Part shown: one piece after another, positions 22,101 through 63,140 of the stretch | Layout: each line of letters starts with the position of its first letter | Position numbering within the stretch: position 1 is the stretch's first letter | DNA from: Malania oleifera | Lineage: Eukaryota > Streptophyta > Magnoliopsida > Santalales > Ximeniaceae | Reading direction: 5' to 3' | Assembly: GCF_029873635.1 (NCBI RefSeq) | Contig: NC_080423.1 | Location: 100,378,991-100,442,990, forward strand | DNA: 64,000 bases | Made by a program: the position numbers and the translations under genes | The notes under the pieces: generated by a model | Told to the model about the DNA's origin: nothing | Databases searched by the model: none | The model's input: only the letters and a program-made list of their open reading frames with translations

Positions 22101-25100
22101 ATCTTTCAAAAGTTGATTTGATAGCAGAAACAGCAAGCTCGCTCTTGCTTACAGGATGCCCTTTTTGACAATCTGCTAAATGAATTTGACCATATGAGGA
22201 ATAAATCAAACCAGATATACTATTTTAGCAGTTGAGGAACATGTTTGATAATAAGACCTATTCTTAGGCAGTTAGGCCCTCTCCTAATACCTTTATCACC
22301 ATCACCTGTAATAACAAAATCATCCACATAAACAACAAGAAGGATCCTACCCGATTCCCTTGATTGCAGTAGTGGATCCATCAGCAAGAGTAACAGAAGG
22401 TAAATTTGCAGGATATTGAAGAGTGGAAAAAAAGCTAGGTATACTTGTGATATGATCAGTGGCAGCGGAGTCTACAACCCAAGGACTAGAATGGGAAGTA
22501 CTGGATTAAAGGCATACTGTGTGCTTACCTGTTTAGGCAAGGGATGCAATGGGAAGAGAAGCTTGTTCTAACGCTTGATACTGCTGGAACTTGAAACACT
22601 CTTCCAACATAGAGATAGCATGTTGCCCCCCACTCGACCCCAAAGGTGAGATTGGCTGCCCCCAAAAGTGTGAAGTCAGTGGTGCATTGGCAACACTGTG
22701 ACGGTCTGCCGTGAAGATCCCAACATTGCTCAATACTATGATTATTCCATCCACAATGACTGCACTTGCGAGGAGTACCTCAGCCTCATCAGTCTCTACC
22801 ACTACGACTACTCGAACCACTGCGATAACTTTTGTAGTTGATAGGTAGAGAACTAGAATCATTCTGTGTAGCAAAGGTTGTTCTCTCAGAGCTAGATGCA
22901 AGAGCAGGAGAAGGCGTACTAAAGGAAGCACGAAGGACACGAGAATAAACATCAGCAAATGATGGCAGCTTGGCACTACTGAGTATCTGGGACCAAACTA
23001 CCTCAAACTCAGGTCTCATGCCTGCTAGAACAAGAAGAACTGTCATCTGCTCCCTCTGCTTCTGACGAACGTCGGCTGTTATAGGTTGCATGACGTTAGG
23101 CTCCTCATGAACACACTTCATCTTTCCAAAATAATCCGCAATGCTCTTATCTCCTTGTTGTGACTGAAAGTACTCCTGGGATAAATCATACATACGTGTA
23201 ATGTTATTGGAGTATAGAAGTTTGACATAATCCCAAATCTCCTTGCACGTATCTAGATGCATACACATCCGTGCAATCTGTGGCTCCATCAAATTCCATG
23301 AAAGGGAAACAATCAAAGCATCTTCCTGAACCCATTTGTCTTTTCTCTTCTCATCAGAAGAATCAGATTGGAGCAAATGGTCAGATTTCCCTAATCCTAC
23401 TAAATAAATCCGAACAGCTTTAGACCATTGAACATAGTTCTTTCCATCCAACTTTTGAGTCGTCTAGGAAACAAATTTTTGGGATTCATAGATTCCATCC
23501 CAACACTCAAAAATCAGCAATCACACCAAAAACAACAAGAACAATCAAAACTAATCAGGACCATCATAAACTATGTCAAGCACAGGCACGACGATGGATG
23601 AGGTGAACAACTCACCGATGGATATAGCGCTGCCACAGCACTCACAAATCAGCAACCACACCAAAAACAAGAAGAACAATCAATAATTGGAGCAATCACA
23701 AACCATGTGAAGCACCAACGCAACCACAGACAAGGTGAACAACTCACTGACGGATATAGCACTGCAATAGAACGCTGCCATGGCTCCAAAAAACTCACAA
23801 GGAAGCCTTCACAAACCCTGAACAGAAATTAACAGAATACCACAAGTACATGGTTGAAAAGGTTGAATTTTTTGAGCAAAAAACTGGCCTAACGGCTTGA
23901 TAATATAGTCTAAAGAAGGAATCGGAGCATGGCAGGACAAAAAATAAATAAATAAGTGGCCAGAACTGCTATCACGTGCTAGCGCATGGGGTCGACCTTG
24001 CCGGAATTTGGCTGGCGCGTGGGGTGCCCTCCGGTGATGGGGTTTAGTGGGGTGGGTCATTGGGGAGGTCTGATTATGGGTATGTGATTCATTTTGTGAT
24101 TTAGTATCGGACGGAGGTGGATTAGGGAATAACAGCCATGGGAATGGTGTTTTCCGGCGATGGACGAGGGAAATAGGGTTAGATAGGATCATGCCCTGAT
24201 ACCATGTTAAGATTTGATTAAAAATGAATGACCTAACTTGAAGATAGGTCTCTCCCTCTATTTATAATACAACTTTAAATACATTCTAATGACAATAATA
24301 CCCTTACTAACCCTCACTAATTAATATACTAACACACTCAATAATAATACTACTAAAAGACATATATAACCTCTAACAACAACCTTAAACATGCAAAAAC
24401 CCATGTTGAGAGGAATTTAGAAGCAATGAAACTATAAAGATGGTGATGGATAATTTCAACTAGACATGATTTTTCAAACCATTAATGACACATGAAAAAG
24501 ATATTGCTACAAACTTTTCAGAAATAAAAGCTCAAAACCTAAAATCTGTCAAGGCTTATGTTTTTCTGGAAGATCATCTTCCTCTATTTAATACACTAAA
24601 TGGCCACTTGGCCTTTATGCTAGCAATTAGCCAGTGCAAACCCTGCTAAATCTGCCCTAGAAAGTTTGTCCATGATATGGTGTTAAACTTCACAATTCTT
24701 CATCTCATGGTGTGATTTAATAAAGTTACAGTTGTCATTTGGAGATCTCCCTTCTTAATAATACAGGGAATGAAAATACCATAGTCAAAAGAGAAAAAGT
24801 TATAGAAGGAGTCCTCTGAGAAGAGAAGAGACAATGAAAAAAGAAGCCAACTAACCACCCAAGAGAGAGAAATTAAAGCAGTTTCAGTAAAATTCAAGAG
24901 AAAAAAAATGACAATCGCAGAAAACCAAGGTTGAAGGAGAATAAAAAGAATGGTATCTATGGTCTAACAATAGTAGGAACAATGAATTGATTTGAATGAC
25001 TGAATTCCTCTCCAAATGCTGCCAAGAAAGCAAGCAATTCTGGTTCAACTACATGACAACACCAACCAACTACATACGAAGAATAAACCATGTTCCAAGA

Positions 25101-32103: not shown

Positions 32104-32849
32104 TGTAACGCCCTAACCTGGGTCTGCCAAGGAGCACTACGTTTATCCTCCTCTACCTAGACCAGACAATAGGGAGGCCGGCATTATCAGATTAATGATT
32201 GGCCCCACAGATCAACACGTGTCATTTTCAGTGTATTTTATCTTCACTCACGCACTTCTTAAGAAAACTTCCCAATAGGTCACCCATCCCAATATTGCTC
32301 AAAGTCAAACACGCTTAACTGTGAAGTTCTTATGGGAAAACTCCCGAAAAGAAATGTGCACCTTGTTGATATGGGTAATAACATCTAATCTTTTTAAGTA
32401 TTTTCATCCATAGGGTATCACATTCTCCCCCACTTATAGAACGCAACGTCCTCGTTGCGAATCCAAATTTCCAAACCCAAGCGATGTGAATCTCATCACA
32501 CTTCTGGTTGGGTGTTGGTTCTGATACCATTTGTAATGCCCTAACCTGGGTCTGCCAGGGAGCACTGCATCTCTCCTCCTCCACCTGGACCAGACAACAG
32601 GGGGCCGGTATTATCGGACTAATAACTAACCCCATAGATCAACACATGTCATTTTCAGTGTATTTTGTCCTCATTCACACACTTCCTGAGAAAACTTCCC
32701 AGAAGGTCACCCATCCCAATATTACTTAAAGCCAAACACGCTTAACTATGGAGTTCTTATTGGAAAGCTCCTGAAAAGAAAGATACACCATGTTGATATA
32801 GGTAGTAACATTTAATATTTTTAAGTCTTTTCATCCATGAGGTATCACA
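32104..32849 (-). mobile_element. Cassandra-type TRIM with 5S rRNA-like LTRs
   Basis: Two LTRs, 32104-32422 and 32532-32849, both TGTAA...TCACA, enclose 109 bp. On the minus strand the core starts with a primer site (aatggtatcagaacc) and ends in a purine tract (aagtgggggagaa). On the minus strand each LTR carries agttaagcgtg and, downstream, gggatgggtgacc and tgggaagt, in the same order and spacing as 5S rRNA. That 5S-derived block defines Cassandra elements. Flanks tactg and tacta look like a one-off target duplication. The element has no coding capacity, as expected. LTRs differ at about 14% by eye, suggesting several million years. Confidence 0.92.
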
Positions 32850-37892: not shown

Positions 37893-38689
37893 GTAGTAAT
37901 ATTAGATAATTTACAAAAAGAGTTTGATTCTTCTTATCATCGAAAAAATTAATCATTATTTGTAATATATAAAATACGTTCCATGTGCAATGCACGTGTC
38001 CATAATGTATTGAGAGAATATGTAATTGGGAGTGTTTGGAGAATTGCCCATCTTTACCAACTTGACCCAAACCATCCATGAATAATGATCTTAAAATACT
38101 TGGTTGGCAAGAGATTGTTATTCTATATAAATTTATCTCATGGGTTGAACGACATATTTAGCGTGCAAAACTACTCTACCCAACATGACCCAAATATAAT
38201 TGTAATGGCAAGAAATTTATTTGAAAAGAAAAAGAAAAAGAAACAACAACAACAACAATGACAAAATGATGGAAGAGAAGGTCAAAGGCTATGTATAATT
38301 GTAAGAACTCTTTAAGGTTTAATCTCCACATTTCGAGTTAATAGACAATTAATTTTGTCAAATTAATGGATGTGGACGTTATTTGATGATTGCTTGATCA
38401 CTTTATCTACGCTGTCTATCCCTTGTTTTGCAAAGTCATTAACTAATATTATTGTTTTTGATTTATTACAAACAATAATTTTACACCGATGACACTAATT
38501 TTTATGCTCAACTTGGATTAGTTTAAGCCCTAATCTTTCAATCATCATCAGTTCCAGAAAACAATTACTTTATGTATAACAGTATAAGAAAAGAAGACAC
38601 TTGAGTTGCTTAGCTAAAGTGACCATCGAAGGACCTCATGCCTAAGTCAATTGAGATGTAGTCGTAATGGAAAATGGTGAATTTAGGAT
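37893..38689. other. AT-rich intergenic segment
   Basis: Nothing recognised apart from a short (AAC)n tract near 38243-38258. Confidence 0.4.
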
Positions 38690-39130
38690 TCCAAAGATGT
38701 TTTGTCGCGCCCCAAATCCGGTGGAGCCAAAGTGCTATATCTTATACATATATTTCTGATACCATAATTATAACGACTCGAACCCAAACAAGGAGTCTTG
38801 GGTGTCCCTATCCATAAACTCAATTTAAACATGTTGCGGAAGATATTTAAACATCAAACACATTACCAGAGTTCTAAACCATTATAGTTACACATATTTA
38901 TCTCTATGTTCTATATATTACATGCCAAAATAAACTAAACATGACAAATCCAGTGTTTCACAACACTTACGATACCTACAAAATCGAATCCTAGCCCCGT
39001 AGCACGCTAGGCTCGATTCCTTGTAGGACCTGAAATATGAGATGGATATTGGGGTGAGACACTTCTCAGTAAGACAGATTAGATTATCATCAATGTGTGG
39101 CTAACATGAGTTTTAGTGTGATCATAATAC
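38690..39130 (-). mobile_element. Ty3/Gypsy LTR fragment with primer site
   Basis: On the minus strand the fragment contains cttactgagaagtgtctcac, then further on gggttcgagtcgttata, directly followed by a primer site attatggtatcaga. This is the 3' end of a Gypsy LTR and the start of its leader; the same cttactga...gtgtctcacc pattern occurs in the LTRs at 41054-46880. It is truncated. Confidence 0.6.
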
Positions 39131-41053
39131 ATTCATATACCTAACTGTAGGTGAAAAGGCATTTGAAAACTATACTCACACCTATATTATTCAAAATACA
39201 TAATTTCCTTGATAACATACTTTTGGCTCATTATAGCCCATGTTGGGATTGGTGTATTCTTAAGAGGGAAATGAATGAATTACAACCAATAAAGTTTTTC
39301 GTACAATTAAAAGTTCTTTTAACACAATCAAGTTTATACAATTATATGATCCAAATATATGCACTCACAGATGATATGGATTTAATGCTCAAGTGAGATC
39401 TTGAAAATTTAATTCAAGACAATATATTATTCAAATGAATATTCAAGGTTACCTCAAAACCCTAATCAAGTATCACAAAGATATTTTATCAAATATAATC
39501 ATAACAGACACTTAGGGTTTAAGCTTGCAAAAGATTTATCAAATAAAGTAAGTAAGCTCTCAAATCTTGCATTTTGAATGCAAAGACTAGTAAGCTAAAA
39601 CAAGTTATTCCCAATCAAATATTTGCATACGAAATATTATGGGAATAAACAATCAAGCAAAACTCTCAAAAAGATTTTTCAAATTTGTATGAATATGTGA
39701 GAGTAAGGCCAAGGAAATGATTTGAAAGATGCACACAATAACCTTAATCAAATCCCTACAAACTTGTCAAATCCCTACAAACTTGCAATTGAATTGCAAG
39801 AGAGGAATAATATGAAACTCTCTACTTTAAAAATAATATTTGCAAGTAAGTGTAAGAGAGAGTATTAAAAAAAATATGCTTGATATGTAAAGTATATAGC
39901 AAAAGAAGTATAAAAATTTGAGAGGAATTTTTGCTAATTACTTTTTGCTAATCGCCTATCTAATCAAGGCAAATGATGGGTATATATAGAGTGCCTTCAA
40001 AAAATAGTCGTTGGGGGCACATTAGGTATTTTGAAAAAGTTTAATTAAAATTTAACCCCAATTACCTTTAATTAACCACGAAAAAAATAAGGCAACCCGA
40101 GAGTTTCAGTCACCCGGTTCTTAGGGTCGGTCGCCCAAACAGACATATAGAGAAAAGTGAAGTTTTTGACTTTGAATGCTCGAGGGTGAGTTCGGGTGGC
40201 TAAGTCAAGGCGATTTCCCAAACGTTCGAGGTTCGGTCGCCTAGTGAGTAGTTCGGTATGCCGAACCTCACAATTCGGTCGCCCAGGGTGATTTTGAACA
40301 AAACGTTCAGGCCCCGGTGGAAGGTAAAAAGTGATAGCTCTAGGGTTCGGTCGACCATAGACATTCAATTCAATTTCAGTTCGGTCGCCCGAGCCATAGT
40401 CAATAGTTTGACCTAGTCTAGTTCGGTCGACCGAGGCATTTATAATGCCAAGGTTCGGTCACCCGAAGCTCTTTCAAGCTTCAATTTTGGTCCTGATTTT
40501 GATAAGTAGTCACCCCTATTCATATACTTATAACTCTCGAGTTATAGGGGATTTGTCATGAGGTGCTTAGGGACCAAAAGTCATTCTATGGCCTAGGATT
40601 TTAAATTAAGCCCAAAAATCTGGCATGAATAAGTTATAGCATTTTGTGCTAAGGTTTTAGGGTCATAGTGGTCAATCTATGGTCTTTTGTATCTTGAGCA
40701 TTAAGTCTTATCATGCATGCAAATGCATTATTACATACCATATTATATTACAAACCCAAATAAAATTGAATACAATTACAACAAGAAAATGTGGTCTTCA
40801 TTCCCTTTGCTTCTCCAATAGCCATACGAGGCTTGATCTTTACGGACCGTATGACTTCCTTGTGTTCCTAAAATCAGTGCATGCTAAGAATGAACCTGTT
40901 CAAGAAGTTCAATGCACACGTAAGTTACTTTATATTTGTCATAATCAAAACGAGATAAGACTCAAAAAGTCAACAATCTCCCCATTTTTTATGATGACAA
41001 ATACAAATGCAAAAGTGGGAAAGCCAAAGAGGGCTCCTCCTAAGAGTATGCAT
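39131..41053 (-). mobile_element. SIRE/Maximus-like Copia fragment: 3' LTR and end of internal region
   Basis: On the minus strand the LTR starts TGTTGACTTTTTGAGTC at 40975, directly after a purine tract (aaaaatgggg agat, 40976-40989) and the last bases of the internal region. LTR sequence runs to about 39.13 kb, where the Gypsy fragment begins. It matches the inverted solo LTR at 52843-54786, including an array of ttcggtcgcccga motifs at 40100-40460 and the conserved ttttgattatgacaaa near the start. The internal part is interrupted at 41053 by the element below and resumes at 46886. Confidence 0.65.
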
Positions 41054-41297
41054 TATAAAGACCCGAAAAAATTAAAATGATTAAAATAATTAGAAAAAAT
41101 AATAATAAATAAAATAACAGATAAATAAATAAAAGAAATGGTGTGGAAAAAAGTAGAAAAAAATTAAAAATAAAAGAATTAAATTAAATTAAGATAAATT
41201 AAATAATTAAATAATTAGTTATTAAATTAAATATTTTTACATTGGATTTAAAAATAAAAATAAAAAAACCATATAAGATAAGTATAAGATAAGTTTA

Positions 41298-41331
<34 letters not shown>

Positions 41332-43673
41332 GTAAAGTTTACTGAAAAGAAGAAAGTAAAAGAAGAAAGAAGAAGCAGGAGAAGAACAGAGGCGACACCC
41401 CCCCCCCCAAAGCTTTTCTGCGTGCAGCACGCAGCCACGTCCGTCTCCGTCTCTTTCTCTCTCAATTTCTCGATGAGTTTGTAACAGATCGGGAAACGGA
41501 AGGTGTCGTTGGAATCCTGGTTCCGTTGCCGACATTTCTATTGGAGCAGATTTTTCATGGGAACGGTTTAGGCATTGCTCTTGGGGAAAGGTATTTTTTT
41601 CCTATTTTCTCAATTTCTCTGTAAATATACTGTTAAATCAACAATCGGACACCACCACGGGGTCCTAGTCGTCGTCATCGTCATTTTGGCATAGGTAATT
41701 TTACAATTGGGGTTTTCTAGGTCCTACTCCAAAGCAAGAGTGGGATTTGTAAAATTTGGCAATTTGACTATATTTGCAGGTATTACTATTTATTTAGGAA
41801 TTATGGCCCTAGGAAATATTTAAATAATATTTTATTTAAGAATAATTTATTGGAATTAGGAATTTAATTTCAGGATCCGGGTGAGCGCCGCAGGCATCTT
41901 TTCGAGGTCCCTGTTGGCGTAGTTCAAAAAACAAGGTAAGGGAAAAAATATATATTGAATCAGAATTTTTATGAATTTAATGAAAAAATAAATTGTGTTA
42001 TATGTGCGTGTATATGTCTCGGTATGGGTAAAATGCCAACCATTTAAATTATATTTTTTTCGAGTTTAGGGCTGTTTATTGGATATGTATATGCGAAAAT
42101 GAACTAATGAAAATGAGAAATATTTTCAGAATAATTATATAAGAAATGAAAGGTATTTTCAGTATATAAACATTAAATGTTGGTTGACTTATTTTACAGG
42201 CAGTTTATGAATTTTATTATTAAATTGTGTGGCATGAGTAAATAGAATGTTGTGTGGAAATATATGTTAAATGTATGAGATGCAGGTTAAGTAAATAATG
42301 CATTGTGAATAAAACATGACATGGACTATGTTGCTTGTGTGTGTTAATGCAACCAAGTAAAAAGCTTAAAGATGTTGGGTAAAACAGCTGAAAGATGTTG
42401 GGTAAATGTACGATAGCTGAAAGTCGGGTTAGTAGATTTTAGCGCATTTCTATGTGGACTAATTGTTAGTAGATCTAGCTTATTTCTATGTGGACTAACT
42501 GTTAGCAGATTCTAGCGCATTTCTATGTGGACTAACTAATGACGGCTAAAGAGCGGTTGTAGTACAAATGAATGAAATGAAAACGTTATGCAATGAAATG
42601 ACAATGGAATGACAATGCAATGAAATGAAATGTGAAACGTGAATGATATGAATGAGAAAGAGTCACTTAAAGTGAAATGCAATACAATGTTAAACTATGA
42701 ATATGAACAGATGTGTATGATTGAATAATGATAGAAAGAATGATGTATTATGATATTAGAAGTATGTATGTACGTAGAACATGTTACGATTGGGCGAGGC
42801 GTACCTTTCACTTGAGGGCTTGCTGAATAAGGCGAGTGTACTAGTAGTTACAGATGTGGTAGTAGCCGCATAACGTACTAAGGCAGAGGGAACCTACTTG
42901 TATGGGCGGGTAGATTTCCCTATCCTTAGGGCCTTCGCCGATAAACTTTTGTATGAACTGTGTGAGTACGAGATCAATTTATCACTTGAGAGCTTACTGG
43001 GTAAGGTGAGTGCCCTGGTATGCTTTAGTTGTGACCTTTGGGTTGCCAAATGTATCAGAGCAGAGGGGTGCTTCTTGTATGAGCAGGTAATCACCCCTAT
43101 CCTTGGGTAATCTCATGGGTAAAATATTTTGTATGTGTTTGAATAGGATCAGAAAATAATTTTGAAAATTATGTTAAGAATTTGCAAATGTTAAATATTA
43201 TGTTGACTATAAACTTATGTTGATCACACACTACTTTAATATATTGTTTGTTCCCTTACTGAAATGTGTCTCACCCGAATATGAATTTATCTTTTTTCAG
43301 GATTTCCTCGAAATTGAGCTTTGAGAGCTCGAGGTTTTTATAGCATTATTGGGAAATAGAAAAAGAAAATGGTATATTTCTATGTTAATTTTGGGGAATG
43401 TAAATATTTATGTTTTATGCCTTTATGTTTTAAGGATATTGAGTGAGGAATGATTGTGAAAATACTGAATTGTTTTGGAAGCTATGTAGATTTATGGAAA
43501 TGCAGGTGATGGGTGATTTAATATGGATTATAGTTAGAATTAGTAAACTCTGATATTATGTTATATGGAGATTTTATTTTTGTTTCCGCTGCTTATGATA
43601 CGGATTACGGATTATCAGGGATTTTATTAGGTATAACGCACCGGACCCGGGTTTAAGGGTTCGAGGCGTTACA
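41054..43673 (+). repeat. 5' LTR of the giant-LTR element
   Basis: The 2620-bp LTR has a (TA)n tract near 41301-41331 and a run of C at 41399-41408. A block of gaatgaaatg/gacaatg short repeats lies near 42565-42630. Confidence 0.88.
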
Positions 43674-44134
43674 TTGTGGTATCAGAGCAATGTCTAGCCG
43701 AAAGTGTGATTAATTTCACATCGGCTGGATATAAAAATCTTAGAGTATTAGGTTAGAAATGATTTATACCAGAGTATAGGAAACAGTTAAGATAAGGATG
43801 CTAAATGGATGAGTTAGGTTAGGTGTTGAGAAGTAGGTATGGTGTAGGGAAGTATAAGATTTTGTCTTATAGCTTGGAGCCGAAAATCCCTTGGCGGACT
43901 TATGTGATTTTCTGATTCATTTGAAAGTTTTTGAAAACCACGGTAAATCCATCGAGGGTAATGTTTCTTAACCGTGAGACTGGTCCTTATATGGAGAACT
44001 TGGATGTGTATTGGATTTAAAGTATATAATTGTGTTGTTGAGATTATGGTGTAGGATATAGTAAATTGTGGAATTATGAGAATGAAAGATCGGGTAACAA
44101 ATTTCAAGGACAAAATTTCTTAAGGAGGGAATAA
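43674..44134 (+). other. Core of the giant-LTR element: primer site, leader and polypurine tract only
   Basis: The primer site is at 43674-43690 and the purine tract at 44121-44130. In between is non-coding sequence, rich in short A/T tracts, without recognisable gag or pol motifs. Confidence 0.8.
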
Positions 44135-46880
44135 TATAAAGACCCGAAAAAATTAAAATGATTAAAATAATTAGAAAAAAATAATAAATAAAATAACAGA
44201 TAAATAAATAAAAGGAATGGCGTGAGAAAAAGAAAAAAAATTAAAATAAATAAATTAAATTAAATTAAGATAAATTAAATAATTAAATAATTAGTTATTA
44301 AATTATAATATTTTTACATTGGATTAAAAAAAAAAGCCTAATTAAAATAAGAGAATATATATATATATGTAAAGTTAACTGAAAAGAAGAAAGTAAAAGA
44401 ATAAAGAAGAAGAAAGAAGAAGCAGGAGAAGAACAGAGGCGGCACCCCCTCTTGAAACTTTTTTGCGTGCAGCGCGCAACCACGTCCATCTCCGTCTCTT
44501 TCTCTCTCAATTTCTCGATGAGTTTGTAACGGATCGGGAAACGGAAGGTGCCGTTGGAATCCTGGAAGAAGAAAGAAGAAGCAGAGAAGAACAGAGGCGG
44601 CACCCCCCCCGAAACTTTTCTGCTTGCAGCGCGCAACCACGCCTGTCTCCATCTCTTTCTCTCTCAATTTCTTGATGAGTTTGTAACGGATCAGGAAACA
44701 GAAGGTGCCGTTGGAATCCTGGTTCCGCTGCTGACATTTTTACTGGAACAGATTTTTCATGGGAATGGTTTAAGCACTGCTCTTGGGGAGAAAGGTAACT
44801 TTTTCCCATTTTCTCAATTTTTCTGTAAATATGTGGTTAAATCGACAATCGGACACCACCACGGGGTCTTAGTCGTTGTCGTTGTCATTTTGGCGTAGGT
44901 AATTTTCCAATTGGGGTTTTCTAGGCTCTACTCCAAAGCGAGAGTGAGATTTGGAAAATTTGGCAATTTGATTATATTTGTGGGTATTACTATTTATTTA
45001 GGAATTATGACGCTAGGAAATATTTAAATAATATTTTATTCAAGAATAATTTATTGAAATTAGAAATTTAATTTTAGGGTCTGGGTGAGCACCACAGGCA
45101 TCTTTTCAGGGTCCCTGTTGGCGTAGTTCAAGAAATAAGGTAAGGAAAAAAAAAATATTAAATCAAAATTTTTATGAATTTAATGAAAAAATAAATTGTG
45201 TTATATATACGTATATATGTTTCAGTATGGATAAAATGCCAACCATTTAAATTATATTTTTTTCGAGTTTAGGATTGTTTATTGGATATGTATATGCGAA
45301 AATGAACTGATGAAAGTGGGAAATATTTTCAGGATAATTATGTAAGAAATGAAAGGTATTTTCATTATATAAACATTAAATGTTGGTTGGCTTATTTTAA
45401 AGACGGTTTATAAATTTTATTGCTAAATTATGTGGCATGAGTAAATAGAATTTTGTGTGGAAATATATGTTAAATGTATGAGATGCAGGTTAAGTAAGTA
45501 ATGCATTGTGAATAAAACATTACATGGACTATATTGCTTGTGTGTGTTAATGCAACCATGTAAACAGCTGAAAGATGCTGGGTAAATGTACGATAGCTGA
45601 AAGCTGGGTTAGCAGATTCTAGCGCATATCTATGTAGACTAACTGTTAGTAGATCTAGCTTATTTCTATGTGGACTAACTGTTAGCAGATTCTAGCGCAT
45701 TTCTATGTGGACTAACTAATGACGGCTAAAGAGCGGTTGTAGTACAAATGAATGAAATGAAAACGTTATGCAATGAAATGACAATGGAATGACAATGCAA
45801 TGAAATGACAATGGAATGACAATGCAATGAAATGAAATGTGAAACGTGAATGATATGAATGAGAAAGAGTCACTTAAAGTGAAATGCAATACAATGTTAA
45901 ACTATGAATATGAACAGATGTGTATGATTGAATAATGATAGAAAGAATGATGTATTATGATATTAGAAGTATGTATGTACGTAGAACATGTTACGATTGG
46001 GCGAGGCGTACCTTTCACTTGAGGGCTTGCTGAATAAGGCGAGTGTACTAGTAGTTACAGATGTGGTAGTAGTCGCATAACGTACTAAGGCAGAGGGAAC
46101 CTACTTGTATGGGCGGGTAGATTTCCCTATCCTTAGGGCCTTCGCCGATAAACTTTTGTATGAATTGTGTGAGTACGAGATCAATTTATCACTTGAGGGC
46201 TTACTGGGTAAGGTGAGTGCCCTGGTATGCTTTAGTTGTGACTTTTGGGTTGCCAAATGTATCAGAATAGAGGGGTGCTACTTGTATGAGCGAGTAATCA
46301 CTCCTATAATTGGGTAATCTCATGGGTAAAATATCTTGCATGTGTTTGAATAGGATTAAAAAATGATTTTGAAAATTATGTTAAGAATTTGCAAATGTTA
46401 AATATTATGTTGATTATAAACTAATGTTGGCCACACACTGCTTTAATATATTGTTTGTTTCCTTACTGAAATGTGTCTCACCCGAATATGAATTTATCTT
46501 TTTTCAAGATTTTATAGAGATCGAGCTTTGAGAGCTTGAGGTTTTTATAGCATTATTAGGAAATAGAAAAAGAAAATGGTATATTTCTATGTTAATTTTG
46601 GGGAATGTAAATATTTATATTTTATGCCTTTATGTTTTAAGACTATTGAGTAAGGAATAATTATGAAAATACTGAATTGTTTTGGAAGTTATATAGATTT
46701 ATGGAAATGCAGGTAATGGGTGATTTAATATGGATTATAGTTAGAATTAGTAAATTCTGGTATTATGTTATATGAAAATTTTACTTATATTTCCGCTGCT
46801 TATGATATGGATTATAGATTATCAGGGATTTTATCAGGTATAACGCATCGGACCCAGTTTTAAGGGTTTGGGGCGTTACA
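44135..46880 (+). repeat. 3' LTR of the giant-LTR element, with an internal tandem duplication
   Basis: It is about 126 bp longer than the left LTR. The gain is mostly a tandem copy of the block with gaagcaggagaagaacagag and gagtttgtaacggatc, about 44411-44566 repeated to about 44700. A second, smaller gain is an extra gacaatggaatgacaatgca unit near 45800. Confidence 0.85.
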
Positions 46881-46885
46881 TGCAT

Positions 46886-47440
46886 AATTTCAAGACTTCA
46901 ATGTAAATCAAGCATATCTAAAGAGGAAGACATTTCAAATACAAAATGCATTCAAGTTTGTCATTTAAGCTCAAGTATCAAGAGTACCCAATTTTGCAAG
47001 TGTATTTCTCCCCCTTTTGGCATCAGCAAAAAGGGTTAAGTTAAGTAAAACAATTTGACCATTTTGAAAAAATATTAGCTTAAGAGAACAATCTTTATTT
47101 AATATAATTTCGGGCATATAAAAAATATAACTGTTTTTAAAAAGTATGGCAATTGAGTACTCAAAACAATATAACAGGTCATTTGAATTGAAAATGTCAT
47201 AACAAACCAAGTCAAACTAGAAGTATTCACAAATCATTGTAGTTTGAACAATACATAAGACCCACAAACATAGTGGAGTTCAGAACATGCGACATATGAT
47301 AGCAAATAATGGATTTGCGAATAAATTTAGTCTAATAGGTTTGCGTACATTTTCATGTGAAATCACCAAACTAGTTATGCAATTCAAAAACATATATGTA
47401 TATAATAATCAATAAAGCAATAGATAAAGGAAATACATCA
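46886..47440 (-). mobile_element. SIRE/Maximus-like Copia internal remnant, distal side of the nested insertion
   Basis: After the duplicated tgcat the interrupted sequence resumes. On the minus strand it carries ccaaaagggggagaaata, a purine-rich stretch of the type found near the end of the internal region of SIRE-like elements. No recognisable coding domain is left. Confidence 0.4.
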
Positions 47441-47462
47441 AAACCTTTTTCATATAGTTAAT

Positions 47463-48495
47463 ATGGTAGATGCCAAGCTTATTTCTGCACCTCTTGTGAC
47501 TACAAAAGCTCTCAAATTGTCTGATGGCTCTCCATCAACTGATGCCACTTTGTATCGCCATACTCTTAAGTCGTTACAAAACATTTTCTTGACATCTCCT
47601 CATGTTTCCTTTTCCATCAACAAGCAGTGCCAGTTCATGCACTCTCGTCCCACCCTTCATTGGTCTGCAGTTAAACGATTGCTCCGCTATCTGGTTGGCA
47701 CTCTTGACTACGGCATCATGCTTCGCACAAACTCTCCTTGGACACTTCATGCACTTGCGGATGTCAATTGGGTAGGTGATCCTAATGATTGGACTTCGAC
47801 CTATGCTTATGTTATTTTTCTTGGCCCTAATCCCATTTATTGGAGTTCTAAAAAGCAAAAGATTGTCGCTCGCTCCTCCACTGAGGCTGAATATCAGGCT
47901 ATTGCCTTTACTGCAACTGAAGTAAATTGGGTAATGAATCTTCTTCAAGAGTTGCATGTACCTGTATCTCTTACTCCGGTCATCTACCATGACAACGTGA
48001 GTGCTATGTATGTCTGTGCCAACCCAGTCTTTCGTTCTTGAATGAAAGACGTCGCTATCGACTTCCACTTTGTTCGTGATCAAGTTGCTATAGGTCGCCT
48101 ACGTGTTTCCCATGTTCATACTTTTGATAAACTTACGGTATTCTCTTACCAAGCCACTGTCTCGTCTCCACTTTCTTACTCATGGAACCAAGATTGATGT
48201 CCTCAACGACTAGTCAATCTTGCGGGGGCATGATAAGTCAAAAATGTCTATTGCTCCTTCATTCAAGCCATCCATGGCTCCTCAAGTCAATCCATAATTA
48301 TCTCCTTGATTCTTGACTCCAAATATATGGAAACAATATTTATTTTATCTGTAATTATTATGTGGATATTTAGTTGATCTCTAGGATTCATTTCCTTCGA
48401 TATTTTTCTTTTATATTGTTGGTATTTACTTGTATAAAGCTATGTACCATTCAGAATCAAAGTACATAATATCAATATCTTCTTTCTATTAGTCA
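47463..48495 (+). mobile_element. Ale-like Copia 3' fragment: RT end, RNase H, 3' LTR
   Basis: The fragment starts within the C-terminal part of RT (MVDAKLISAPLVTTKAL). It runs through LHWSAVKRLLRYLVGTLDYG and RNase H with RSSTEAEYQAIA and IYHDNVSAMYVCANPV, then a polypurine tract (tgcgggggca, 48221-48230). A 265-bp LTR follows at 48231-48495 (TGATAAGTCA...TTAGTCA). The 5' half is absent. It is broken, with a few breaks downstream of RNase H. Confidence 0.82.
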
Positions 48496-50335
48496 CCAAA
48501 AGCTGTGATTGATTTGCACTACTAGCTTACTGGTAAAGGGATTAGTCATGTAAATCCCAAACTCAATTTTAAGTCTACCAAGTGGTGATAATCTAAACTT
48601 ACTATGTATTGTGGTGTATTGAGCCTCGAGAGAAATAATGGTGCATGATAGTTATCTATAGCACACTAGCACATTATGAGCGTCAAAGTGGGAGAAGGGA
48701 CAATGATATCAAGTAAATATAGCCATGGTGGATATGATTACCGATATTGTTAAATCAAAATTGACTCAGTAACGAAATATTTAAAAAATAATAAAGAAAG
48801 AAATAGTCAATTCCATTTATTTCACTTGTGTATTTTTTGACTATTTTTTTAGTTATACTGTTTTTTAATTATCTTCGAATGGGGCAATTGAAGAAGTAAG
48901 GATCAAACCACATATTCAAGTTTTTTTTTATGATAAAGTAAAATCATAGTTAAAAAAAATGAGTATTTTGATAAATTAATTTTTGGCAATAAAAAAAATG
49001 ATTGTGATTATTGTGATTATCTGTTATTACATTTCAAGTTGTATTATATTATTTTATCTTATTCATTTCTCACTAGACAATATTATGAAACTTGACATGT
49101 CACATATTAGAAAAACCTTTGACAAGGCCTCGAGGTGAACTAGAATACAAATTCATAGCTAGCTTTATTTATATATTTGTTTGCACATTTTTTTTAAAAA
49201 AAAAGAGGAGGACAAATATAAATATGATTTTTTTTAAGAAACACAATCTTCCAAAAGATACGTGGATCAAAACCTATAAAATTTAGTCTAGTGTATACTT
49301 TTTAGATACAAACTATTTAAATTTTTTTTGACTTTGCGCTTAGAAATGACGTTTCTTTTATGTATATGTAAATTTTTTTAAATGTCTCTTGGATATAGAA
49401 TATTTTATACATTTATAATCTATTTAATTAGAGAGAAAAGGCAAATTAATGAACTTATAGATGAGAAGAAAAAAATTGAAAAATAAAAGACATTAATTCC
49501 TCTCCACGCTTTATGGTCTAATAAACGACAAAGTGGAGAAAATCACGAAAAATAAAATGAAAAAAATGATGACACGTTACAATCATACAATATGAAGGAA
49601 TGCTTTTTTAAAAGTGACTCGGGATAAACTATAAAGTTGCTATTTTAAAAAAAATTTGTTTGTCTTTAGTTTGCAGAGAAAAATAACTCCTTTAAAAAGA
49701 TTGCTCTTCTTCGATTTCATACAAATCAAGCGGTAAAAGTGAAGAAAATCTCACTTATTATTACTATTTGATCTTTTATGATTTGATTCTATCCAACTAA
49801 ACTTACTATTTGGAGTGAAAAAAAAGAACAAATGATAATATATTTGAAAGTTGAACAACAAAATTGAATATTTTCCCGCCTTACACACACACACACACGC
49901 ACAAATACTATGTGTAGGTTGAGTTTGACATTTTTTTTTTCCCGATACATCATTTCTAAAAGTAAAAGTTTTGTTTAACACATTTGATAAGTAACCATTT
50001 TTGGAAACCTTTAGAAACTATGAATTTAAAAATTTTAAAAGCTAAATGTTAGTTTCCTGCACCCCCCAAAATATTATATTCCATTGTTGCCCTTAATTTT
50101 TTTTTTCAAATAATAATTACAAAATTGTCATTGTATTAGTTTCATTGCTTAAAAATACATATCCATTTTAATCATTTTAAATATTTTCACTCACCTTATA
50201 ATTTGTTTACTAAACACTAAAAACTTGCTTTTTCTTTCTAACAACTTAAGAAAAAAAATCTAAACAATGTTTGCAATAATCTCAATTGACTCATTTTCAT
50301 AAGTATTTTTTAGTATATTTTTGAAAGTCGCAAAG
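48496..50335. other. AT-rich intergenic segment
   Basis: Nothing firmly recognised. The stretch at about 50020-50290 resembles that at about 52240-52530 (shared aaaatacatatccattttaa/aaaatgcatattcattttag blocks), probably two copies of an AT-rich MITE without resolved ends. Confidence 0.4.
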
Positions 50336-60090: not shown

Positions 60091-60329
60091 TTGTTATGAA
60101 GGTAAAATTTTTTCATTGAATCATATGCTAAATTAACATCTCAAAGATTCATGTTGAATTGTGAAGGACAAAGCGAATTTCTTTTCATTTGAAAAAGGGG
60201 TAGAAATGTGTGCACTGAAAAATGGAATTTGTTTAGACAATATAGAAATAGTAGAGAATGGGTGAGTGGTTGGGTTTTGTTGGTAATAATTTGAAGGAAG
60301 ATGCATGAGCAAATGTTTTCAGGCATATT

Positions 60330-61546
60330 GATGCTCTTGTACAATGGAATGACTTGAGCCTTAAGATTATAATTGATTGGGTGAACTTTTAAAATAGTAC
60401 CTTAATTGGGAAGGCCCAAGTATATAGGACAAATATTAACTCAACTCGATTTCTTTTTAATGGCCTAGTTTCATTGGCTTCTGTTAAGGTCTAGGCAACT
60501 GAATTGCAACAATTGGTTTTAGAGGCTCAACAAAAAAAAGGCTTAGAGGCATTGTACAAAAGGTTTGAGCAGTTCATTTTTCTTCTTCTTCTTCTTCTTC
60601 TTCTTTTTTAATGTGAATTTGAAGGTATCTTTTTGCTTTGCATTTTGTAGAATGAGGAAGCATTGATACCGATGTGAGACATAGATATGACATCATAGGT
60701 GATACTACATTTTTCGAAAAAATGTCGATACGATTTGTTAGGGATACATTAACTAATTAGTAAAGGAGTGCTAATCTGAAAAAAAGGGGATGGATTTTGT
60801 TATCTGTCCTAGGAAACAATTTTCTCTCTCTCATGAACTTCTCTTTGGCTTCGATAGTACTAGGCAATGTGTAAGCGCTTGATTCAGATCAAGGGGGTTA
60901 GACAAGGTGGAGAGATTTAATTTCTATTCGTGTTTTGATGCTCTTGTACAATGGAATGGCTTGAGCCTTAAAATCTTAATTGATTGGGTGAACTTTTAAA
61001 ATAGTACCTTAATTGGGCAGGCCCAAGCATATAGGACAAATATTAACTCAATTTGGTTTCTTTTTAGTGGTCTAGTTCCATTGGCTTTTGTTAAGGTCCA
61101 AGCAACTGAATTGCAACAATTGGTTTTAGAGGCTCAACTAAAGAAGGCTTAGAGGCATTGTACAAAAGGATTGAGTAGTTCAATCTTTCTTCTCCTTCTC
61201 CTTCTTCTTTAAAGTGAATTTGTAGCTATCTTTTTTGCTTTGCATTTTGCAGAACTAGGAAGCATTGATATCGATGTGAGACATAGATACAACATGATAT
61301 TGATGTGGTGATACTACATTTTTCGAAAAAATGAGGATACAATTTGATAGGGATACGTTAACTAACTAATAAAGGAGCACTAATTCGAAAAAAAGGAGGG
61401 ATGACTCTTGTTCTCTTTCTTAGGAAACAATTCTCTCTCTCTCTCATAAACTTTTTTTTGGCTTTGATAGTACCAAGCAATGTTTAAGCGCTTGATTTAG
61501 ATCGAGGGTGTTGGACAAGATGGAGAGATTTAATTTCTATTCATGT
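60330..61546. repeat. 607-bp tandem duplication in XPO1 intron 2
   Basis: Both units begin gatgctcttgtacaatggaa (60330 and 60937) and end in gagagatttaatttctattc. They share, in order, gattgggtgaacttttaaaa, the TTC-rich tract, gaagcattgata and ggaaacaatt. Similarity is roughly 90% by eye. The second unit runs directly into the reading frames at 61.5-63.1 kb. Confidence 0.85.
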
Positions 61547-63140
61547 TCGAGAATAACCTCTCTTGCACTCGATGGGTACAACTCTCGAAAGAGGCAACTC
61601 ATTGGTTTGTTGATGGTCTATCAGATTTGGCTCGGCTAAAGAGGGTTTCATGGAAGGTCCACATGGGAAATCTACAATATTGGATGACGATTAGGTGGAC
61701 GAGGGTGGGGAAGTATTTGGAGTCGGGGCTGGGTGGAAAGGTAAGAAATTTTTATGTTTGTTCTTGGTGGAGCAGAATGGGATGTTTGGCGAAGCTTTGT
61801 GAATTAGCTAAGTAGCTTCACCATCAATCTAGAGGTGGTTGTGTTGCAAGTCCTATTGCTCCTAGATCATGGACTCAGGTGATGATGGAAGGGAAGGTAG
61901 GTGATGGAGAAGATTGCATAAGTAAATTCCAATTAGGTAAGGAGGATGTTGTGCGTGGGAGAGAAGCTGTGGCTTCGGTGTTGGGACAAGCTGTAGTTGA
62001 AGGTTTCAGACCTGCCCAAATTGCTAAGGAGGCTAGGGTTTCAAAGGATGTTGTGACTCTAGCTGAGGTAGCTAGGGTTACGCTTGGGGAAGAGGAGGTT
62101 AGTTGGGCCAATTCCTTTGTTTTGGATTGGGTTGGATAATTGAAAAAGAAGGAGCCTCCTTTTTAATTGAGTTAGGCTGCATAATTAAACATGCCCATAT
62201 TGCTCCGAGCCCTATTTTGGATGATAAGGATGGCTCGCCTCTTATGTGTCTTTTGTCCATCATAAGGGAAAGGACTGGGCCAATCAGCTCATAGATTTTG
62301 ATAATGGGATGGCCGAACTCCCAAGCTTCAATTCACAAAAGCAGAATATTGAGAAGAAGACTATGCCCAATGTATTTCTCTAGCTCCTCAAGATACGTGG
62401 AATAAATCAATTGTGGAGCAAATTTAGGATTGATAGCTTGACTTCGAGAAATTCTCTTGTGGCAAAGATGGAACAATAAAGTATAGAAGTGGCTGATGAT
62501 TTTGGTTTTGCAGAGGTATAAGAGCCTGATGTCGCCAAGGCTGATAGAGGAGATGGTGACTTAGGGTAGCAAATATGATGTTTTAGGCTTGAAGTTAGAT
62601 GAATCTAAGGGTCCCAAGGTTTATGCTTGTTGGAAGGCTGATCTGACGGGTGCAGAAAAGAGGTAGCTATATGAAGAAAAGAAAAGGCTCTTCAGTGAGA
62701 ATGTGCCAAATCTTTTTTGCTTAGAAGATGGGCAATTCTTGTGATGATGGGGCTAGTGAAGGAAAGGAGGAAATGAAATGGGGGGTTGATAATGATAGTT
62801 ATGATCTTAGCGAGTTTGATTGTGCTGAGGGTTTGCTGTTGGATGAGTTTAGGGAACAACATGGTTATATTTTTAATTCATGTGATGTTTTAGGGGACAT
62901 ATCATATGTACATCTGTCTCCGTTGGAAGGATTTGAGGTTGTTTCTATTTTTGAGGACAATGGTTTGGTTAATGAACTACGGTGTGAGGACAGAATTTTA
63001 CCTACACTAGGGGAGGAGATTCCAGTGAAGGATTTAGAAGCTAAAGATCTTATGGATAAATTCGATTTTAAGTTTTGTGATCTTGGAGGAAATAAAGTGC
63101 AATATGATGGGGGCAATGATAGAGCTAAGAAAGGTTAAAG
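61480..63140 (+). pseudogene. Degenerate repeat-type reading frames, possibly a plant LINE ORF1-like remnant
   Basis: Short consecutive open frames lie on the plus strand: 61543-61815 (with WMTIRWTRVGKYLE, loosely like a gag/ORF1-type module seen in plant repeat proteins), 61879-62139, and 62728-63138 (acidic, Asp/Glu-rich). They lie in different frames and are separated by stops. The gene is inside XPO1 intron 2, in the same orientation, and follows the tandem duplication. No reverse transcriptase or nuclease motif was found, so the LINE idea is weak. A captured or decayed host gene fragment is equally possible. Confidence 0.3.

What the first reader, a model, noticed from the sequence alone, without database searches (positions are those of the whole stretch)
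41054..46880. Gypsy-like element that is almost all LTR: 2.6-2.7 kb LTRs around a 461-bp core
Seen: two long direct repeats, a perfect 5-bp target duplication, an initiator-Met primer site and a terminal purine tract, with no gag or pol. Known: TRIMs have short LTRs and short cores, and LARDs have long LTRs with multi-kilobase cores. Inference: this combination fits neither class well and may define a distinct non-autonomous group that borrows proteins from a Tekay/Del-like partner.
Basis: partly seen in the sequence, partly recalled or inferred. Interest (0 to 1): 0.75.

Follow-up and report, generated by a model that had tools for sequence, protein, structure and literature searches.

The report
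Giant-LTR parasite retroelement that recombines with Cassandra
A high-copy plant retroelement that is almost all terminal repeat carries no genes, looks like a stripped Gypsy element, and is found fused to the tiny Cassandra element, a clue to what moves Cassandra.

Summary
It is a dispersed family, not a one-off deletion: a core 30-mer (<=3 mismatches) has 447 genome matches, reversed control 0; of 16 elements measured, 10 have perfect and 5 have 4/5 TSDs; in a second sample 17 of 20 loci keep primer site and 3' LTR start, core 456-464 bp in 16.

The core reads as a Gypsy 5' UTR joined to a Gypsy polypurine end, gag-pol absent: positions 93-408 align at 60% to one gag-bearing element (E 1e-10), and three elements with Gypsy integrase domains share the 3' end.

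Unexpected: the sequence after the primer site is shared with Cassandra, a 5S-bearing TRIM also in this window. The two families are joined at the primer site in both orders; the two composites read with Cassandra at both outer ends have perfect TSDs. I infer co-packaging and strand transfer in one particle. By a published size rule it is a LARD; the short core and the Cassandra link are unusual. No autonomous partner with these LTRs was found.

The parts
41049..41053 (.). left target-site duplication TGCAT
41054..43673 (+). 5' LTR, 2620 bp, TA...CA ends
43674..44134 (+). core, 461 bp, no open reading frame
43677..43688 (+). primer binding site TGGTATCAGAGC (initiator-Met type, recalled)
   Evidence: kept in most of the 22 rows
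43690..43732 (+). stem-loop straight after the primer site, sequence shared with Cassandra; proposed packaging/dimer signal
   Evidence: (z -5.15 in this copy; weaker in others)
43766..44081 (+). stretch related to the 5' UTR of a gag-bearing Gypsy-like element (core positions 93-408)
   Evidence: 196/326 identical, E 1e-10 with L032
44122..44130 (+). polypurine tract; 44100-44134 resembles the 3' end of elements with Gypsy integrase domains
44135..46880 (+). 3' LTR, 2746 bp
44406..44722 (+). tandem duplication of about 160 bp inside the 3' LTR (92% between copies)
46881..46885 (.). right target-site duplication TGCAT
32532..32849 (-). Cassandra TRIM 5' LTR with 5S-like stretch (element TSD TAGTA/CAGTA, 4 of 5)
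   Evidence: 5S_rRNA model 1-120, E 0.0018, below gathering score
32423..32531 (-). Cassandra core with primer site and the related post-primer stem-loop
32104..32422 (-). Cassandra TRIM 3' LTR with 5S-like stretch
   Evidence: 5S_rRNA model 1-120, E 0.00038, below gathering score

Best explanation
This is one copy of a successful non-autonomous LTR retroelement family. A Gypsy element lost gag-pol but kept what the machinery needs in cis: LTRs, primer site, a stem-loop after it, the 5' UTR and the polypurine tract. Its RNA is made from its own long LTR, packaged by proteins of a Gypsy element through 5' leader signals, reverse transcribed from initiator-Met tRNA, and integrated with a 5-bp target duplication. 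The leader is shared with Cassandra, so the two RNAs are packaged in the same particles; strand transfer at the common primer site then joins them, giving composites with Cassandra LTRs outside and this element inside. Shown: anatomy, family, TSDs, shared leader, composites. Inferred: trans-mobilization, co-packaging, the role of the stem-loop, the exact partner.
For: Family with own TSDs. Core to Gypsy UTR: 196/326 identical, E 1e-10; best core hit against reversed subjects E 0.056. That element (L032) runs on into a gag fragment that matches a Pfam-recognised Gypsy gag. 3' end shared with three loci carrying the SH3_Tf2-1 integrase domain. Shared leader: this copy scores 20 against Cassandra, reached by 1 of 5000 shuffles; 22 copies score 20-30; five Gypsy UTRs 9-10. 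Composites: locus A [Cas LTR]-[our core]-[our LTR]-[Cas core]-[Cas LTR], TSD ACATC 5/5 (its middle 2.6 kb not fetched); locus B, same order with an internal deletion, read in full, TSD TGTAC 5/5. Junction counts at <=3 mismatches, reversed controls 0 each: ours-ours 99, ours-Cas 19, Cas-Cas 542, Cas-ours 15, of which 8 were read and 7 are true hybrids.
Against: No autonomous element with these LTRs was found. Three hybrids with unlike outer LTRs lack a perfect TSD (4/5, 2/5, 1/5), which suggests DNA-level recombination for them. The stem-loop folds clearly better than shuffles in this copy (z -5.15) and moderately in L022 (-2.31) and Cassandra (-1.89), but three other copies are near shuffles (-0.29, -0.55, -0.73). 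Covariation is modest: one double change between the families and one isolated one, a number of pairs that 387 of 500 shuffles reach, though 0 of 500 reach the percentage paired; on 22 copies alone RNAalifold prefers another outer fold. Only 1 of 5 Gypsy UTRs aligns beyond 16-19 bases. Expression and particles were not tested.
Confidence: 0.6

Rival explanations
1. Composites arise in the chromosome: ectopic or circle-mediated homologous recombination between inserted copies at the shared primer-site/leader region, with no co-packaging.
For: Mixed arrays of varied order exist (L064/L073; L077/L078); 3 of 3 hybrids with unlike outer LTRs that were read at both ends lack a perfect TSD; a one-LTR circle recombining into a resident Cassandra would also leave Cassandra's TSD intact.
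Against: The shared stretch is short (PBS, then 32 of 43 columns identical in this copy), while LTR-LTR homology between copies is kilobases long; before the core in 18 second-sample loci with a primer site I found the family's own LTR end (13), Cassandra's (2), or own LTR plus a ~220-bp insert (3, of which 2 were read in full) and no other family.
Confidence: 0.35
2. Ordinary LARD: a Gypsy deletion derivative; the similarity to Cassandra's leader is an old common Gypsy leader with no present functional meaning.
For: A size rule files it as LARD (PMC6022998); Cassandra is long known; LTR divergence of 0.04-0.14 shows mostly old insertions.
Against: None of the five sampled Gypsy UTRs carries the leader (scores 9-10), and junctions with Cassandra are not rare beside the families' own.
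Confidence: 0.3
3. One-off internal deletion of a full element at this locus only.
For: None found.
Against: 447 core matches and the same core size at independent sites with their own TSDs and in the second sample.
Confidence: 0.01

Closest known systems
LARD (large retrotransposon derivatives)
   Same: Long LTRs, no coding core, high copy number, Gypsy type, over 2 kb
   Different: Classic LARDs have a multi-kilobase conserved core (recalled); here the core is about 460 bp, 8% of the element
Cassandra TRIM
   Same: Post-primer leader sequence, primer site, tandem arrays with shared LTRs; physically joined to this family in composites
   Different: Cassandra LTRs here are about 320 bp with a 5S-like stretch; these are about 2.6 kb and no Rfam family reaches its gathering score in 38000-50000
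Chromovirus-type Gypsy elements (Tekay/Del-like, label recalled)
   Same: 5' UTR stretch in one of five sampled, polypurine end, weak LTR-end similarity
   Different: They carry gag or pol sequence and the five sampled lack the Cassandra-like leader
Template-switch complexes of Sabot and Schulman 2007 (PMC1950507, passages seen)
   Same: Three LTRs, two cores, like outer LTRs, flanking TSD
   Different: Their examples (Angela, Squiq, Opie) join members of one family; composites A and B join two different non-autonomous families

Membership tests
LTR retrotransposon | two direct LTRs with TG...CA-type ends, PBS, PPT and TSD | tested here: met
   this copy starts TA instead of TG
LARD | no coding domain and length >=2000 bp (Inpactor rule, PMC6022998, passage seen) | tested here: met
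   5827 bp; stops in all six frames of the core
LARD | multi-kilobase conserved non-coding core (recalled) | tested here: not met
   core 457-465 bp in 15 of 16 measured elements; L025 spans two cores
TRIM | whole element shorter than 1000 bp (PMC10886601, passage seen) | tested here: not met
   5827 bp
Gypsy derivative | leader and 3' end related to Gypsy elements that carry gag or pol | tested here: met
   the long leader match is to 1 of 5 sampled elements
Tekay/Del chromovirus lineage | partner with chromodomain and placement in an RT tree | tested here: inconclusive
   no Pfam hit in the 46-aa piece that looks chromodomain-like by eye; no RT tree built
Cassandra (window 32104-32849) | 5S-like sequence in both LTRs | tested here: met
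   both LTRs match the 5S_rRNA model 1-120, E 0.00038 and 0.0018, both below the gathering score; the same scan of six fetched loci with Cassandra LTRs gave no hit at E<=0.1
Cassandra | membership of the 5.8-kb element itself | tested here: not met
   no Rfam match at gathering score in 38000-50000; a Cassandra LTR query found no match inside this family's LTR in L054 and L055 at E 1e-6

The most novel reading that the evidence does not exclude
Cassandra, for which a 2024 author saw no indication of an autonomous partner (PMC10886601), is packaged and integrated by the same Gypsy machinery as this giant-LTR family; a common leader stem-loop is the packaging tag, and the composites are fossils of both RNAs sharing one particle.
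Probability: 0.45. Interest if true: 0.8.

Novelty: new variant of a known kind. Interest (0 to 1): 0.6.

Why it matters
[quoted passage not shown] TSD-flanked composites and a shared leader make that question testable in this genome, and point to a Gypsy element whose leader resembles this core. The family also shows that an element can reach high copy number with a core of about 8% that keeps little more than the Gypsy cis regions.

Tried and rejected
Internal-deletion one-off: rejected. Autonomous partner with the same LTR ends: a 5' pattern with excluding letters gave 221 matches; 5 of 221 were fetched; their LTR ends differ from ours apart from weak 62-72% matches near the LTR end (L030, L031, L033; E 5e-5 to 3e-4) and AT-repeat hits that the reversed control also gives. 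A search for hairpins followed by neither known core gave 3 matches, which look to me like changed copies of the two known cores; because the excluded letters act on whole families, one other family would be missed about 7 times in 8, so this is weak. Covariation within the family alone is poor: RNAalifold on 22 copies kept the inner stem but preferred another outer fold. Core versus LTR identity between elements (0.911 against 0.829, core higher in 55 of 55 pairs) is biased, since loci were chosen with a core query; I draw nothing from it. A third LTR-core arrangement (L034, L050, L052) turned out to be own LTR plus a ~220-bp insert between two primer-like sites (2 of 3 read in full). A third composite (C2:134700850) ends right in a Cassandra LTR, but its left end was not in the stretch fetched. 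Two Cassandra papers on recombination, PMC7750724 and PMC4079214, are not held, so composites of this kind may already be in print there.

Rows dropped or doubtful: one search used the window and 15 of 20 loci (L013, L016, L023, L026, L028 left out as truncated or complex); its LTR divergence is misaligned or rests on a short piece for L014, L015, L018 and the last LTR of L020. L014 and L015 have the same flanks, a duplicated site, so their TSDs count as one event. One search used 11 elements. In one search the script reported a 592-base core for L043; one search shows that this is not a core length, and I do not count it.
Full report
Anatomy. The element is 41054-46880: LTR5 2620 bp, core 461 bp, LTR3 2746 bp, TSD TGCAT on both sides. 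The LTRs differ by K2P 0.073. LTR3 holds a tandem duplication of about 160 bp. Stop codons interrupt all six frames of the core. Both LTRs of this copy begin TA; most others measured begin TG.

Family. The host is an unnamed assembly of 1.49 Gb. A query of 801 bases over core and LTR edges returned a capped list: 40 candidates scored of 8263 in the first look. I fetched 10 kb around 20 places of that list; all 20 hold the core with these LTRs or parts of them. Of 16 elements measured (window and 15 loci), 10 have TSD 5/5, 5 have 4/5 (two of these, L014 and L015, share flanks) and L011 has 1/5; where both LTRs could be aligned over most of their length, K2P runs from 0.039 to 0.140. A core 30-mer with up to 3 mismatches has 447 matches, and 0 for the reversed control. 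From its first 100 listed places I fetched 20 on the plus strand: 17 of 20 have primer site and 3' LTR start, core 456-464 bp in 16 of these and 441 in L036; L037 and L051 lack the 5' part; L043 has the primer site but passes from core position 417 into LTR position 85. That sample is of well-kept copies, since the listed places have 0 mismatches.

Tandem copies. L016, L019, L020 and L028 show LTR-core-LTR-core units. L019 (CACGG) and L020 (GAGAC) have perfect outer TSDs around three LTRs. Core pairs inside an array are 0.965 (L019), 0.935 (L020, L016) and 0.895-0.902 (L028) identical, against a mean of 0.908 for 114 pairs between loci. Sabot and Schulman read TSD-flanked three-LTR complexes as template switching (PMC1950507, passages seen); unequal crossing-over inside one element would also keep the TSD (my inference).

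Source of the core. A pattern for the primer site after a CGTTACA end, with letters that exclude this core, gave 221 matches. I read 5. Core positions 93-408 align to L032 at 196/326, E 1e-10; L030, L031 and L033 share only 16-19 bases there (ATACCAGAGTATAGG-like) and L029 gave no BLAST match at that point; the best core hit against reversed subjects is E 0.056. Gag-like pieces of L031 and L032 match the gag of L017 (E 5e-21 and 1e-13 for single comparisons), which Pfam calls Retrotrans_gag and Ty3_capsid; the pieces of L031 and L032 themselves had no Pfam hit. The last 35 bases of the core resemble the 3' ends in L015, L016 and L024, loci that carry the SH3_Tf2-1 integrase domain. So the core is best read as leader plus purine-tract end of a Gypsy element. 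The name Tekay/Del is recalled, not tested.

The Cassandra link. Window 32104-32849 (minus) is a TRIM with 5S-like LTRs: both match the Rfam 5S model over 1-120 (E 0.00038 and 0.0018, below the gathering score); the same scan of six other fetched loci with Cassandra LTRs gave no hit at E<=0.1. Its post-primer sequence resembles the leader of the big element. The local score is 20 for this copy (32 of 43 columns identical; 1 of 5000 single-letter shuffles reaches it), 20-30 over 22 copies, and 9-10 for five Gypsy leaders. The leader folds into a stem-loop: z -5.15 in this copy, -2.31 in L022, -1.89 in Cassandra, but -0.29, -0.55 and -0.73 in three other copies. On 22 rows of this family plus 5 Cassandra rows, 92.3% of cells pair, against 25-56% when slid and never in 500 shuffles; one pair changes U-A to C-G in five rows; but the number of pairs with double changes (2) is reached by 387 of 500 shuffles and the covariation score by 15 of 500. 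A leader pattern has 909 matches, control 0; among the 100 listed, five pairs lie 423-430 bases apart, as in Cassandra arrays.

Composites. Among the 18 second-sample loci with a primer site, the LTR before the core is the family's own in 13, Cassandra's in 2 (L042, L048; read at length as L054, L055) and the family's own plus a ~220-bp insert in 3, of which 2 were read in full. Junction patterns (<=3 mismatches, reversed control 0 each): ours-ours 99, ours-Cassandra 19, Cassandra-Cassandra 542, Cassandra-ours 15. The last differs from Cassandra-Cassandra by only 4 letters, so it needed reading: of the 15, I read 8; 7 have this family's core after a whole or partial Cassandra LTR (L055, L058, L060, L062, L064, L068, L070), 1 (L066) is Cassandra alone; 7 are unread. 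Because the patterns contain the post-primer letters, they say nothing on where in the leader the switch lies. Of the 19 ours-Cassandra matches, the one in L061 was read across the junction and the one at C9:30854593 was read on its Cassandra side.

Both outer ends could be read in five loci. Locus A (C6:109671122-109675028; L060, L061, L072): Cas LTR, our core, our LTR, Cas core, Cas LTR, TSD ACATC 5/5; the 2.6 kb between L060 and L061 were not fetched, so our core (first 123 bases read) and our LTR (last 400 read) are joined by inference from their spacing. Locus B (C4:80579644-80581323; L062, L074, read in full): the same order with our core ending at 412 and our LTR starting at 2102, TSD TGTAC 5/5. 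L054, L055 and L068 have a Cassandra LTR left and our LTR right: 4/5, 2/5 and 1/5. So 2 of 2 with like outer LTRs have perfect TSDs, 0 of 3 with unlike ones do. That is what reverse transcription predicts for A and B, since both outer LTRs copy one template; a circle recombining into a resident Cassandra would look the same. The three unlike cases look more like recombination after insertion. The two outer Cassandra LTRs are 0.893 identical in A and 0.928 in B; each is about as close to some other Cassandra LTRs compared (up to 0.902 and 0.924), so this does not single out the pair.

Mechanism. I think the RNA is packaged in trans by Gypsy proteins via the leader, primed at the initiator-Met site, and integrated by Gypsy integrase. 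Cassandra RNA enters the same particles by the same leader; transfer at the shared primer site joins the two. The anatomy, TSDs, shared leader and composites are shown; packaging, partner and the role of the stem-loop are inferred.

Known or new. By a size rule it is a LARD (PMC6022998, passage seen), but the core is short. The statement that Cassandra has no known partner is from PMC10886601 (passages seen). Searches for print on long-LTR short-core elements and on Cassandra chimeras, packaging or partners showed nothing of this kind in the titles and abstract starts listed; several lists were cut (25 of 32, 10 of 13, 20 of 194, 15 of 80), only open-licence papers are held, and two relevant papers could not be read.

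Noticed in passing
32104-32849 (-): A Cassandra TRIM with 5S-like LTRs and a 109-bp core, TSD TAGTA/CAGTA (4 of 5).
   Followed up: yes
L016, L019, L020, L028: Tandem LTR-core arrays of the family; the three-LTR arrays L019 and L020 have perfect outer TSDs.
   Followed up: partly
L056:3127-3351 and L057:3060-3282 (also L034, L050, L052): Variant with a ~220-bp insert between two primer-site-like sequences after the 5' LTR, not found after the 3' LTR of L056.
   Followed up: partly
22789-23463 (-) and 47424-48041 (+): Copia-type gag (PF14223) and, by eye, a Copia RNase H-like fragment near the element; the second had no Pfam hit.
   Followed up: no
60328-61547: Direct tandem repeat of about 610 bp, 87% identical.
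   Followed up: no
L080 (C2:134706700-134707800): By eye, short tandem repeats of about 50 bases in a row, upstream of a third composite.
   Followed up: no
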